From Armatimonadota bacterium (lineage in GTDB: Bacteria; Armatimonadota; UBA5829; DTJY01): a stretch of DNA of 46,609 nucleotides. Under the pieces are notes generated by a model. It ran no database searches, had not been told where the DNA came from, and saw only the letters and a list, made by a program, of their open reading frames with translations. The stretch covers positions 1-46,609 of the forward strand of contig JANYKG010000047.1 in the NCBI GenBank assembly GCA_025358205.1. Direction: 5' to 3'. Positions 28,541 to 43,350 of this stretch are shown here, in pieces. The position numbers and the translations under genes were made by a program. Numbering within the stretch: position 1 is the stretch's first letter; the number at the start of each line of letters is the position of its first letter.

Positions 28541-29300
28541 AAATGGGGACAGACACAATTATTTCGTCTATCATCAGCGTCATCCCTTCCTCGGGCGACC
28601 CGGCGAGCGGAGGATCTGAGAGCGACCGGCAAGGCTGCACACCCTGTCCACGAACTCCTCGTCGCCGCATGGGAACCCGACATGAGTCCGCTTTCGGATC
28701 ATGTCCACGAACTCCTCATCCTCCGGTCTGCCCAACGCGTACTCCCAATCCTCTATCGCCGCGCCCCAACGTGAATCGCTGCGGATGACGCTGTCCGCTC
28801 GCATTCCCAGGTGGAAAGCCGCACTGCTCCAGCGGTAGTCGGAAGCTCGCGCGACCATCCGCGCTCTGACCGGGTTTCTTTCCACATACCGAATCGCCTT
28901 CACCAGATGCTCTCCGTCCAGCGATGTCGAGAAGAACCTGCCCTGCCATAGATGACCGGTCCAGCCGTGTCGCCAATTGCTGATCCGGCTGTAGCGCGTG
29001 TGCAGCGAATGGAGTGTCTTTCCCATGGAATCGGCAGCGTGCGGAAGTGCGACGATGTGGATGTGGTTCGTCATGAGGCAGTAGGCGAGTATGTCCAGTC
29101 CGAACTTCTCGGAGTATTCCTCCAGCCACTTCAAGTAGTCTCTGCGGTCGGAATCCTCGAAGAACACGTTATCCCCGCGGTTGCCGCGCTGGGTAATATG
29201 GTAGGGTATCTCCGGTAATATATAACGAGCACACCTGGGCATACTGCACAGTTGGCGAGCGGGAAGGAAATTCCTTCTGGAAATTGTGTCTGTCCCCATT
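28541..29300 (-). mobile_element. RAYT element with terminal inverted repeats
   Basis: The element is bounded on the left by the 22-nt repeat at 28541-28562 and on the right by 19 nt of its inverse at 29282-29300. The single gene inside encodes a Y1 HUH transposase of the REP-associated tyrosine type. The same repeat makes the transposase-free pair at 27575-27687. The length (760 nt) fits a one-gene IS200-like unit. Target-site duplications are not seen and are not expected for this class. Confidence 0.85.
28580..29242 (-). CDS. REP-associated tyrosine transposase (RAYT, Y1 HUH family)
   Basis: A 220-residue protein with the full IS200-like signature: MPRCARYILPEIPYHITQRG at the N-terminus, MTNHIHIVALP with the HUH histidines at residues 60 and 62, the helix LVKAIRYVERNPVRA with the catalytic tyrosine at about 119, and the Trp-rich SDYRWSSAAFHLG. 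It cuts and rejoins single-stranded DNA at REP hairpins. ATG 29242 is chosen because the longer frame to 29377 would run out through the terminal repeat. Nothing is broken or missing, so it may be active. Confidence 0.93.
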   Translation of the reverse strand: MPRCARYILPEIPYHITQRGNRGDNVFFEDSDRRDYLKWLEEYSEKFGLDILAYCLMTNHIHIVALPHAADSMGKTLHSLHTRYSRISNWRHGWTGHLWQGRFFSTSLDGEHLVKAIRYVERNPVRARMVARASDYRWSSAAFHLGMRADSVIRSDSRWGAAIEDWEYALGRPEDEEFVDMIRKRTHVGFPCGDEEFVDRVCSLAGRSQILRSPGRPRKG

Positions 29301-29332
29301 AAACACTGGTGCCAAATCCGCCGGTTTTGTCG

Positions 29333-29338
29333 TATAAT
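29333..29338 (+). promoter_or_regulatory. Candidate -10 box of the amidase operon
   Basis: TATAAT at 29333-29338 is a perfect -10 box 70 nt before the amidase start. The best-placed -35 (TGCCAA at 29310, 17-nt spacer) is poor, so the call rests on the -10 alone. The box lies between the right end of the RAYT element and the hairpin repeat at 29371. Confidence 0.35.
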
Positions 29339-29370
29339 AGGGGAGACACTGGTTTGATGTCGCCTTCTCG

Positions 29371-29404
29371 TCCGCATTATTCACAAGCGAATAATCCAGG
29401 CTAG
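29371..29404. repeat. ATTATTCA/TGAATAAT repeat, single-hairpin form
   Basis: GCATTATTCAC AAGC GAATAATCC followed by AGGCTAG. The left half equals the left arm of the first hairpin at 34996-35006 and the right half equals the right arm of the second hairpin at 35051-35062, including the flanks TCC and GGCTAG. It therefore looks like an internal deletion of the two-hairpin element. It ends 3 nt before the amidase start codon and supplies the AGG that may act as the ribosome site. Confidence 0.75.
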
Positions 29405-40775: not shown

Positions 40776-40796
40776 CTGGAAGGTATGGATTTGAGA

Positions 40797-42074
40797 ATGG
40801 CGAAAGTGGTAGTAATAGGCGGCGGGGCCGGTGGAATGCTGGCGGCGGGGCGCGCGGCTGAGAACGGCGCGAAGGTCGTCCTCATCGAGAAGAACGGCGT
40901 GCTGGGCAAGAAGCTGCGCATCACCGGCAAGGGCCGCTGCAACCTGACGAACACCGCCGAGATGAGCGACTTCATCGCGGCTTTCGGTGCGAACGGCAAG
41001 TTCCTCTACAGCGCGTTCTCGCGGTTTCACGCCCAGGATATCAGGGATTTGTTGGAGGGGTTGGGCATGCCGACCAAGGTCGAGCGCGGCGGTCGCGTGT
41101 TCCCGGTCTCGGACGACGCGAACGAGGTCGCCGATACCCTTGAGCGGTGGCTGAAGAAACTGAGAGTGGATGTACGCAAAGGTGCGAAAGCAGAACGAAT
41201 CGTCACAGGCGAACATCCAACATCCAATTCCGGGAATCCGCAATCCGCAATCCGCAATCCGCAATGCGTGAGCGGTGTCAAGGTTTTTAGCGGGATCGTC
41301 CCGGCGGATGCAATCATCCTCGCAACCGGCGGGATCACCTACCCCAAGACCGGCTCCACCGGCGAGGGATACCGCATGGCGGCGGAGGTCGGGCACAAGA
41401 TCATCACGCCGGTGCCGTCGCTCTCCGCGCTCGAAACCAGCGACGGGTGGGTTTCCGCGCTCCAGGGTCTGAGCCTCAAGAACGTTCAGGCGACCATCTA
41501 CACGGGCGAGAAGAAGGTCGCTGAGGAGTTCGGCGAGATGCTCTTCACGCACTTCGGCGTCTCCGGGCCGATCATCCTCTCGCTCAGCAAGGTGTACGCG
41601 GAACTCAAGAAGAAGTCCGATGTGTCACTGACGATCAACCTGAAGCCCGCGCTGAGCCGGGAGCAGCTTGACGCACGGCTGACCGAGGACTTCAGGCAGA
41701 CGAAGATGTACAAGAACTATTTGCCCGAACTGCTGCCGAGAACGCTGATTCCGGTCTTTGCCGCGCTCAGCCGGGTGCCGGAAGAGACGCCCGTCAACCG
41801 CATCACGACCGTTCAACGCGCGAGGATGATAGACATGCTGCTGGGTCTGCGGCTGACCATCGCGGGCCAGAGATCCGTTGACGAGGCGATAGTGACTTCA
41901 GGCGGCATACCGATCAACCAGGTCAACCCAAGCACGATGGAATCCAAGCTGGTATCCGGGCTGTACCTGGCAGGCGAGATGATAGACATAGACGCGGTGA
42001 CCGGCGGGTATAATCTACAGGCCGCGTTCTCCACCGGCTGGGTGGCTGGGGACTCGGCATCTACAGGGCAGTAG
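40797..42074 (+). CDS. HI0933/BaiN-family FAD-dependent flavoprotein
   Basis: A 425-residue flavoprotein: VVVIGGGAGGMLAAGRAAENG (dinucleotide-binding loop), KNGVLGKKLRITGKGRCNLTN, ADAIILATGGITYPKTGSTG and the end DAVTGGYNLQAAFSTGWVAG, all diagnostic of the HI0933/YhiN/BaiN family. BaiN-type enzymes have been linked to bile-acid or related hydride transfer; most members have unknown substrates. An insertion at about residues 139-155 (encoded by 41212-41266) is a translated tandem repeat (EHPTSNSGNPQSAIRNPQ) absent from what I recall of the family, yet in frame. ATG 40797 is chosen; ATG 40785 is too close to GGAAGG and TTG 40791 is also possible. It follows mfd by 44 nt. Confidence 0.85.
   Translation: MAKVVVIGGGAGGMLAAGRAAENGAKVVLIEKNGVLGKKLRITGKGRCNLTNTAEMSDFIAAFGANGKFLYSAFSRFHAQDIRDLLEGLGMPTKVERGGRVFPVSDDANEVADTLERWLKKLRVDVRKGAKAERIVTGEHPTSNSGNPQSAIRNPQCVSGVKVFSGIVPADAIILATGGITYPKTGSTGEGYRMAAEVGHKIITPVPSLSALETSDGWVSALQGLSLKNVQATIYTGEKKVAEEFGEMLFTHFGVSGPIILSLSKVYAELKKKSDVSLTINLKPALSREQLDARLTEDFRQTKMYKNYLPELLPRTLIPVFAALSRVPEETPVNRITTVQRARMIDMLLGLRLTIAGQRSVDEAIVTSGGIPINQVNPSTMESKLVSGLYLAGEMIDIDAVTGGYNLQAAFSTGWVAGDSASTGQ
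41212..41266 (+). repeat. Tandem heptanucleotide repeat inside the flavoprotein gene
   Basis: AACATCC occurs twice (41212-41225), then a diverged unit, then four perfect copies of AATCCGC (41235-41262) and a broken fifth. The tract reads through in frame as GEHPTSNSGNPQSAIRNPQC. The same AACATCCAAC type occurs in intergenic DNA at about 43220 and 43273. Confidence 0.9.
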
Positions 42075-42637: not shown

Positions 42638-42715
42638 TGGGGCGAGAAATGGGACTTGAACCCACGGCCTCCAGGGCCACAACCTGGCGCTCTAACCAGC
42701 TGAGCTACTCCCGCC
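42638..42715 (-). tRNA. tRNA-His (GTG)
   Basis: The minus strand folds as a full cloverleaf: acceptor GCGGGAG with TTCTCGC, D arm AGCTCAGCTGGTTAGAGC, anticodon arm CCAGG-TTGTGGC-CCTGG (anticodon GTG) and T arm with TTCAAGT. An extra 5' G opposite the discriminator C marks histidine. CCA is encoded at the 3' end. It is the last of three tRNA genes in one operon. Confidence 0.95.
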
Positions 42716-42781
42716 ACGGCTACGCACAGTACAAAGATTTTTAGTATAGAGTACATAGACCCAGAGAACGCTCCGGTCATT

Positions 42782-42816
42782 GTTCTTTGTACTTTGTACT
42801 TCCGTACTGTGTATTT
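42782..42816. repeat. TACTTTG heptamer tandem repeat between tRNA genes
   Basis: Two TACTTTG units followed by TACTTCC and GTACTGTG copies. An inverted relative, CAGTACAAAG, is near 42728. It fills the 106-nt spacer between tRNA-Arg and tRNA-His and would be transcribed in the precursor. Confidence 0.7.
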
Positions 42817-42821
42817 GAATC

Positions 42822-42897
42822 TGGCGCCCCCGACAGGAATCGAACCTGTGGCCCACTGCTTAGAAGGCAGTTGCTCTATCCCCTGAGCTACGGAGGC
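42822..42897 (-). tRNA. tRNA-Arg (TCT)
   Basis: Minus-strand cloverleaf: acceptor GCCTCCG with CGGGGGC (one G-U pair), anticodon arm ACTGC-CTTCTAA-GCAGT (anticodon TCT), T arm CAGGTTCGATTCCTG, and an encoded CCA. 76 nt in length. Reads AGA/AGG arginine codons. Confidence 0.97.
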
Positions 42898-42900
42898 AGT

Positions 42901-42976
42901 TGGAGCGGGAGACGAGGCTCGAACTCGCGACATCCAGCTTGGAAGGCTAGCGCTCTACCAACTGAGCTACTCCCGC
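42901..42976 (-). tRNA. tRNA-Gly (TCC)
   Basis: Minus-strand cloverleaf: acceptor GCGGGAG with CTCCCGC, anticodon arm CTAGC-CTTCCAA-GCTGG (anticodon TCC; one A-G mismatch or G-U pair in the stem), T arm GAGTTCGAGCCTC, and an encoded CCA. First gene of the operon, 3 nt upstream of tRNA-Arg, 25 nt after the -10 box. Confidence 0.97.
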
Positions 42977-43049: not shown

Positions 43050-43350
43050 CAATTCAAGATTTCAGATTTGAGATTGCGGAAAGGGAGGCCCGGAGGAATT
43101 AGCCGCCGATTAGCGCGGATAGGAACATGCCGGAAATCAGATAGATAACAGCATCAAGACACGGGAACCGGGTTGGAACCAACCACCGAGTCACTGAGGA
43201 CACCGAGTCCAGAGGAGATCGGGAACATCCAACGTCCAATCATGTTACAGGCAGATCCGCCGGGGCGGACGCCCAACATCCAACCTTGAAGACGAACGAG
43301 GGCACAAGGATAATAAGTCCGGAATCCGGTCACGTATCACTCATCACGAA
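43050..43350. repeat. Mosaic of short-period repeats in the gene-free region 42977-43669
   Basis: Several unrelated repeat types lie side by side: AAGATTTCAGATTTGAGATT (about 43054), ACCACCGAGTCACTGAGGAC (about 43184, relative of the arms at 5773), AACATCCAACGTCCAAT (about 43223), CCCAACATCCAACCTTG (about 43272, relative of 41212), and TCACGTATCACTCATCAC (about 43330, identical to 2118). It is a landing zone or graveyard of the genome's repeat families. No gene is supported here. Confidence 0.7.

What the first reader, a model, noticed from the sequence alone, without database searches (positions are those of the whole stretch)
41212..41266. In-frame heptanucleotide repeat inside a conserved flavoprotein gene
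Two AACATCC units and four perfect AATCCGC units lie within the coding region of the BaiN/HI0933-type gene and are translated as about 17 extra residues (EHPTSNSGNPQSAIRNPQ) between two conserved parts. The same units occur in intergenic DNA near 43220 and 43273. Finding an intergenic repeat type tolerated in a core-like gene, with the reading frame kept, is unusual and suggests active spread.
Basis: partly seen in the sequence, partly recalled or inferred. Interest (0 to 1): 0.6.

Follow-up and report, generated by a model that had tools for sequence, protein, structure and literature searches.

The report
In-frame four-heptamer repeat element insertion
A short dispersed DNA repeat made of exactly four 7-base words has landed, without breaking the reading frame, in a flexible surface turn of a conserved enzyme gene; the same kind of repeat sits inside about a dozen other genes of this uncultured bacterium and recurs patchily in its phylum and beyond.

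Summary
At 41212-41265 the TIGR00275/HI0933 flavoprotein gene carries (AACATCC)2 and (AATCCGC)4, read in frame as residues 143-160. AlphaFold2 places them in a low-confidence loop joining two strands of a beta-hairpin. Close orthologues have a 2-8 residue turn there; one sister genus has an unrelated 27-residue insert in the same turn.

The repeat is not local. The genome (Armatimonadota) holds about 40 or more copies of an element with a fixed size of four heptads, ANTCCGM x4. Perfect copies lie mostly inside genes (12 of 14), mixed copies mostly between genes (3 of 27 inside; Fisher p = 4e-6). All 15 intragenic copies lie on the sense strand, where they encode hydrophilic NPQSAIR/NPKSEIR-type peptides. 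A second four-heptad family forms ~150-bp palindromes here and in a sister genus, and its arm recurs in Desulfobacterota MAGs.

The heptad CGGANTK differs at one fixed base from the Xanthomonas GGGANTN repeats, whose four-unit bias was linked to G-quadruplexes. These copies lack GGG tracts, so that explanation cannot be general.

Best reading: a copy of a dispersed, probably mobile four-heptad element, filtered by protein-level selection. Dispersal is supported; present-day activity and the mobilising machinery are not shown.

The parts
40785..42074 (+). BaiN/HI0933-type FAD flavoprotein gene (TIGR00275, 'aminoacetone oxidase family FAD-binding enzyme'), 429 aa, host gene of the insert
41211..41264 (+). 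whole in-frame insert, residues 143-160 EHPTSNSGNPQSAIRNPQ; low-pLDDT loop (144-159) between strands 136-143 and 160-167
41212..41227 (+). AACATCC x2.3 heptads (AACRTCC type)
41235..41265 (+). AATCCGC x4 + AAT: four-heptad element (ANTCCGM x4), sense orientation
43224..43239 (+). intergenic AACATCC AACGTCC heptads of the same kind
43274..43280 (+). single intergenic AACATCC unit
43057..43090 (-). degenerate intergenic heptads AATCTCA AATCTGA AATCTTG (reverse strand)

Best explanation
The insert is a copy of a dispersed repeat element whose unit of dispersal is a block of exactly four heptads (ANTCCGM x4), here AATCCGC x4 preceded by two AACATCC heptads. Such blocks have been copied to many places in this genome, mostly between genes. 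Because this heptad has no stop codon in either direction, a copy that keeps the frame can survive inside a gene. Survivors are those that land in a length-tolerant surface loop, inter-domain linker or gene end, and, in this genome, those in the orientation that encodes the hydrophilic peptide NPQSAIR/NPKSEIR. In the flavoprotein the copy lengthens a beta-hairpin turn and probably does not change catalysis. Shown: genome-wide dispersal, the fixed count of four, sense bias, loop position, absence from most orthologues. Inferred: that blocks move or are copied as units (mobile, MITE/REPIN-like), and that protein-level selection causes the sense bias. Unknown: the enzyme or process that copies them.
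For: Dispersed copies with no control matches: 73 vs 0, 62 vs 0 for the broader four-heptad pattern. Fixed count: runs of heptads with at most one mismatch are {2:3, 3:1, 4:35, 5:8, 6:2}; runs of the words AATTCGA/AATCCGA/AGCACGA are {2:7, 3:1, 4:17, 5 or more:0}. In 1.09 Mb of viral-contig loci fetched for having at least four, strict runs fall from 132 at four to 7 at five. Intragenic copies: 12 of 14 perfect vs 3 of 27 mixed, Fisher p 4e-6; 15 of 15 sense, p 6e-5. Host genes include IleRS, SbcC/Rad50-like, SpoIID, GH15-like, sulfatase, RND pump and the IspD-IspF junction. Turn position. Four of four same-family genomes lack strict four-heptad copies. A complete inverted pair of four-heptad arms lies in frame in RuvC of G031 (about +34 residues against E. 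coli RuvC), which local slippage cannot make.
Against: No empty allele within a species, no target-site duplication and no mobilising gene was identified. In IleRS the array does not add its own length: net +2, +1 and -2 residues against G001, G002 and G003, so replacement, or insertion with deletion, occurs. Flanks show no conserved target. RAYT (PF01797) copy number does not track heptad counts across the set: rho 0.16, p 0.23. Sense-only survival is not universal: a FolC-like gene of G020 holds an antisense copy.
Confidence: 0.68

Rival explanations
1. Local replication slippage: a chance heptamer inside the gene expanded in place, as in phase-variable simple sequence repeats; the frame is kept because three added heptads equal 21 bases.
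For: Perfect tandem units. Heptamers are the most abundant long SSR class in many genomes and slippage has been proposed (Mrazek 2007, as cited in PMC4679880). Four units could be one seed plus three (inference).
Against: The same word appears at dozens of unrelated sites. Lengths are fixed at four rather than graded. Mixed-word arrays also have four heptads, which copying one seed would not give. Composite inserts with AACRTCC heptads upstream recur at several sites. A paired inverted element sits in RuvC of G031.
Confidence: 0.15
2. A loop selected for its own protein function, for example a binding segment of the flavoprotein.
For: The frame is kept, and two relatives also have a long, different sequence in this turn.
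Against: The same peptide occurs in a dozen unrelated proteins of this genome. The loop is predicted with low confidence, as a flexible segment would be. Other relatives have a 2-8 residue turn.
Confidence: 0.06
3. The four-heptad array is kept because it folds into a G-quadruplex on the complementary strand.
For: Four units match the four-tract rule proposed for Xanthomonas GGGANTN repeats (PMC4692102). The complementary strand here has four GG pairs (sequence).
Against: No GGG tract exists in CGGANTK. The second family (AATTCGA/AGCACGA words) has no G tract at all yet also has exactly four heptads. Single-strand folding energies are not better than shuffles (that program was not asked to score quadruplexes).
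Confidence: 0.05
4. Assembly or binning artefact.
For: Draft assembly of 200 contigs; reads not available.
Against: The array is 31 bp, shorter than common reads (general knowledge). The ORF continues in frame with conserved sequence on both sides. The pattern repeats in independent genomes.
Confidence: 0.02

Closest known systems
GGGAATC / GGGANTN heptameric repeats of Xanthomonas and GGGGA(T/C)T of Nostoc (PMC4692102)
   Same: Heptad period; near-identical unit (complement of ANTCCGM reads CGGANTK vs GGGANTN); most arrays have four units; frequent convergent inverted pairs; dispersed, mixed-word arrays
   Different: Here the GGG tract is broken (CGG), so the proposed three-tetrad quadruplex is not possible; Xanthomonas arrays run up to 26 units, here almost none exceed five; only 7-11% intragenic there, against 15 of 41 scored copies here, in frame in conserved genes
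TAACTGA direct repeats of Beggiatoaceae, cyanobacteria and Bacteroidetes (PMC4679880)
   Same: Dispersed heptamers, patchy over distant phyla, no known transfer mechanism
   Different: TAACTGA has stops in the forward orientation and stays at gene edges; arrays up to 43 units; no rule of four reported in the passages read
Rickettsia palindromic elements (RPE)
   Same: Selfish-looking repeats inserted in frame in many conserved genes and tolerated at the protein surface (general knowledge; not tested here)
   Different: RPEs are palindromes of roughly 100-150 bp; the flavoprotein insert is a single direct-repeat arm. The RuvC insert in G031 (L242) is closer to an RPE
REP/REPIN elements with RAYT transposases (PMC3116915)
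   Same: Short dispersed repeats, sometimes as inverted pairs; RAYT-type Y1 genes are present in this genome, one in the window
   Different: REP cores are short palindromes, not four direct heptads; RAYT number does not follow heptad counts
Cyanobacterial STRR heptanucleotide repeats
   Same: Heptad tandem repeats dispersed between genes (general knowledge; heptanucleotides of Calothrix are mentioned in PMC4692102)
   Different: Different unit sequences; not compared here

Membership tests
TIGR00275 / HI0933-like flavoprotein (host gene) | Match above curated cut-off over the full length, conserved residues kept on both sides of the insert | tested here: met
   TIGR00275 436 bits vs cut-off 184, residues 8-422; PF03486 262 bits; 2i0z 242 bits; 32-sequence alignment A1 with dozens of invariant columns that include the window protein
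Dispersed four-heptad repeat (Xanthomonas GGGANTN type) | Heptad direct repeat with a preference for four units | tested here: met
   reference PMC4692102
Dispersed four-heptad repeat (Xanthomonas GGGANTN type) | GGG tract in each unit, allowing a three-tetrad G-quadruplex | tested here: not met
   complementary unit is CGGANTK; only GG (sequence)
Dispersed four-heptad repeat (Xanthomonas GGGANTN type) | Mostly intergenic | tested here: met
   26 of 41 scored copies not inside a gene, 15 inside. Met only as a majority; the intragenic share is much higher than in Xanthomonas
Rickettsia palindromic element-like in-frame insertion | In-frame insertion of a repeat in conserved genes, absent from orthologues | tested here: met
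   BaiN +15 to +18 residues, SbcC about +15 vs G002; IleRS only -2 to +2; RuvC of G031 about +34
Rickettsia palindromic element-like in-frame insertion | The inserted unit is itself a palindrome | tested here: not met
   window insert is a direct repeat with weak single-strand folding; met only for the RuvC copy in G031
REPIN / RAYT system | Copy number linked to a resident RAYT transposase | tested here: inconclusive
   Spearman 0.16, p 0.23; genomes with 10 or more pairs have more Y1 genes (p 0.006), but G028 has 18 heptad pairs and no Y1 match, and genome size was not controlled
Slippage-type phase-variable SSR | Graded copy number between sites and strains | tested here: not met
   between sites: peak at four, few above; between strains: not testable with these tools
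Known RNA family (Rfam 15) | Match at gathering score | tested here: not met
   only tRNAs in the window; four palindrome-bearing loci gave one weak miRNA match, 31.5 bits against a cut-off of 211

The most novel reading that the evidence does not exclude
Four heptads is a mechanistic unit: a shared, undescribed mobilising system recognises or copies blocks of exactly four 7-nt words (word alphabets such as AATTCGA/AATCCGA/AGCACGA and ANTCCGM) and spreads them across Armatimonadota, Desulfobacterota and other bacteria, singly or as palindromic pairs. It is independent of G-quadruplexes and also supplies new in-frame loops to core proteins.
Probability: 0.3. Interest if true: 0.8.

Novelty: new variant of a known kind. 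Interest (0 to 1): 0.58.

Why it matters
It shows that a short dispersed repeat can be a regular source of in-frame peptide inserts in conserved bacterial genes, and that the four-unit rule seen for heptamer repeats holds in families with no GGG tracts. That removes the quadruplex as a general reason for 'four' and makes the question testable: what process copies blocks of exactly four heptads? The recurrence of the same word alphabet and arm in separate phyla argues either for transfer between phyla or for a shared machinery that was not found described in the papers searched here.

Tried and rejected
First orthologue alignment had minus-strand loci unreversed and was redone. RAYT as the mover: no correlation over the whole set. 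Conserved flank or target of the four-heptad block: only a 3' AAT is informative. Rfam: nothing relevant. Literal sequence searches of the paper library: one paper holding a single 14-mer, not read, then none. Folding of the single arm: not better than shuffles. 'of' with a locus id is not accepted, so other phyla were sampled only through loci already in hand. The two-unit match L136 in a glutamate-synthase-like ORF was set aside, by eye, as an ordinary chance match in conserved sequence.

Full report
OBSERVATION. The window is one contig (C128) of a 4.08-Mb draft genome with 200 contigs. Its closest named relative in the collections searched is an uncultured Armatimonadetes MAG (G001 has a contig of the same 17,089-base length). 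At 41212-41227 there are 2.3 perfect AACATCC units and at 41235-41265 4.4 perfect AATCCGC units. They lie in ORF 40785-42074, a full-length TIGR00275/HI0933 flavoprotein. The insert reads EHPTSNSGNPQSAIRNPQ, residues 143-160.

POSITION IN THE PROTEIN. Among 27 orthologues from related genomes the turn between these two strands is short in nearly all, typically 'DG' (about 2-8 residues). The same-family genomes G001 and G003 have the short form. G002 and G004, one genus of the same family, carry an unrelated segment of about 27 residues in the same turn and have almost no heptads of this kind. The turn therefore accepts inserts in general. AlphaFold2 with a 32-row alignment (mean pLDDT 88.9) gives strands 136-143 and 160-167, with a low-confidence loop between them (block means 62 and 55; residues 152-155 below 50). 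The sequence alignment to 2i0z places the insert at the corresponding connection.

NOT A LOCAL EVENT. The degenerate heptad pair AATCYGMAATCYGM occurs 73 times in this genome with 0 control matches. The same-family genomes have 0-1, while scattered genomes elsewhere in the phylum have many (G020 64, G031 85, G055 137). Reading the sites one by one shows in-frame copies in IleRS, SpoIID, a GH15-like enzyme (two arrays), a sulfatase, a GH116-like enzyme, an M16-like tandem ORF, an SbcC/Rad50-like ATPase, an alpha-mannosidase-like ORF, an RND pump, a heparinase-like protein and the junction of an IspD-IspF fusion. Family assignments for most rest on Pfam or PDB matches; the M16 and mannosidase labels are by eye only. 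An ApbE gene carries AACATCC-type heptads. In IleRS the array replaces loop sequence with a net change of only -2 to +2 residues; in SbcC it adds about 15 residues against G002.

FOUR HEPTADS. Sites that show only two perfect units are usually four degenerate heptads. Counting runs of heptads with at most one mismatch to ANTCCGM, with at least two exact, gives {2:3, 3:1, 4:35, 5:8, 6:2}. A second family with words AATTCGA/AATCCGA/AGCACGA gives {2:7, 3:1, 4:17} and none longer. Many of these loci were fetched for having two AATCYGM units, so the low end is affected by how they were chosen, but the fall above four is not. In viral contigs fetched for having at least four, strict runs fall from 132 at four to 7 at five; those IMG/VR contigs may include host flanks. 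A strict four-heptad search of 291 genomes of the phylum found 16 with copies, in 16 different genera.

GENES VERSUS INTERGENIC DNA. With a codon-usage score trained on long ORFs of this genome, 12 of 14 perfect arrays but only 3 of 27 mixed arrays lie inside genes (Fisher p 4e-6). All 15 intragenic arrays are sense (p 6e-5). The sense peptides NPQSAIR and NPKSEIR are hydrophilic (mean hydropathy -1.1, -1.9), while the antisense ADCGLRI and SDFGFRI are not (+0.6, +0.1). The two antisense cases in this genome, L001 and L005, lie at N-termini that look like signal peptides (by eye). I infer protein-level selection. Perfect copies in genes may be younger, because harmful older copies are lost, or may be kept for their peptide; the data do not separate these. 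Sense is not a universal rule: G020 has an antisense copy in a Mur-ligase-fold protein that looks like FolC.

SECOND FAMILY AND OTHER PHYLA. In G000 and the sister-genus genome G003 the second family forms ~150-bp palindromes: AAxxxCGAAxxxCGAAxxxCGAAxxxCGAAACAA, a core of some tens of bases, then the reverse complement of the same form. Two loci were folded: one as RNA with z -3.2; another, truncated and folded as DNA, was not better than shuffles. The 34-nt arm, one mismatch allowed, occurs 22 times in G000, 13 in G003, 22 in a Syntrophaceae MAG (G293 = L051), 6 in a 'Proteobacteria' MAG (G313 = L095) and 2 in a Deltaproteobacteria MAG (G312 = L093), with 0 control matches. Intergenic DNA of this genome shows autocorrelation peaks at lags 7, 14 and 21 (0.276, 0.262, 0.264 against about 0.254), which coding DNA does not show beyond its period of three.

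WHAT KIND OF THING. The complement of the ANTCCGM heptad is CGGANTK. The Xanthomonas repeats are GGGANTN, mostly four units, often in convergent pairs, and their four-unit bias was linked to G-quadruplex formation (PMC4692102). The present family keeps the rule of four without GGG, and the second family has no G tracts at all. Quadruplexes cannot be the general reason. A full pair of four-heptad arms lies in frame in RuvC of G031: the query matches E. coli RuvC 3-19 and 31-149 at residues 53-69 and 115-236, an excess of about 34 residues. That is hard to explain by slippage and resembles Rickettsia palindromic elements in effect.

MECHANISM. Most likely: blocks of four heptads are copied or moved as units by an unknown process; in-gene survivors are filtered for frame, loop position and a tolerable peptide. 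RAYT-type Y1 transposases, one of them in this window, are candidates only by analogy: their number does not follow heptad counts across 61 genomes. Present-day activity is not shown.

LIMITS. No genome of the same genus was available, so no empty allele was seen. No reads were available. Organism names for most comparison genomes are hidden. Only a small, biased sample of other phyla was searched. The absence of earlier description rests on a limited open-access library.

Noticed in passing
L276-L281 (G000) and L282-L286 (G003), about positions 45-225 in each: A ~150-bp palindromic repeat with four-heptad arms AAxxxCGAAxxxCGAAxxxCGAAxxxCGAAACAA...TTGTT(reverse complement), where xxx is drawn from a small word set (ATT, ATC, GCA, ACT); shared by two genera and, with a longer core, by a Syntrophaceae MAG (L291).
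   Followed up: partly
L242 1292-2047 + (genome G031): RuvC gene with a complete inverted pair of four-heptad arms inserted in frame near its N-terminus, about 34 extra residues.
   Followed up: yes
L227 870-2315 + (genome G020); L230 3-2762 + (genome G045): Four-heptad arrays inside a FolC-like Mur ligase (antisense reading ADCGLR) and inside SecA (sense).
   Followed up: partly
L177 (G000 C92:54456-54483): The stop-free four-heptad array lies exactly between IspD and IspF, so that both are read as one fused protein with linker KSEIRNPKSE.
   Followed up: yes
L141 about 1340-1440, L143/L145, L169/L185, window 41212-41265: Composite inserts with a common order: AACRTCC-type heptads upstream of AATCCGA-type heptads, at two sites followed by AACACC-type heptads.
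   Followed up: partly
L128 about 1530-1560, L131, L146, L147, L189 and elsewhere: Further heptad types near the arrays (ACTCATC, GATTCTC, AAATTCC, AACACCT), as if much intergenic DNA of this genome were built of heptads.
   Followed up: partly
L013 and L014 (G002, G004): An unrelated insert of about 27 residues in the same hairpin turn of the flavoprotein in a sister genus without these heptads.
   Followed up: partly
window 28580-29377 -: A 265-aa Y1 (RAYT-like) transposase gene; one of three Y1 matches in this genome.
   Followed up: partly
L004 about 850-1130: The SpoIID gene carries several repeat types in one stretch, including QHPTSN, KSEIRNPKSEI and two SAEASADK-like peptides.
   Followed up: no
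window 42780-42817 (among tRNA genes 42641-42976): Imperfect TTTGTAC heptads between tRNA genes.
   Followed up: no
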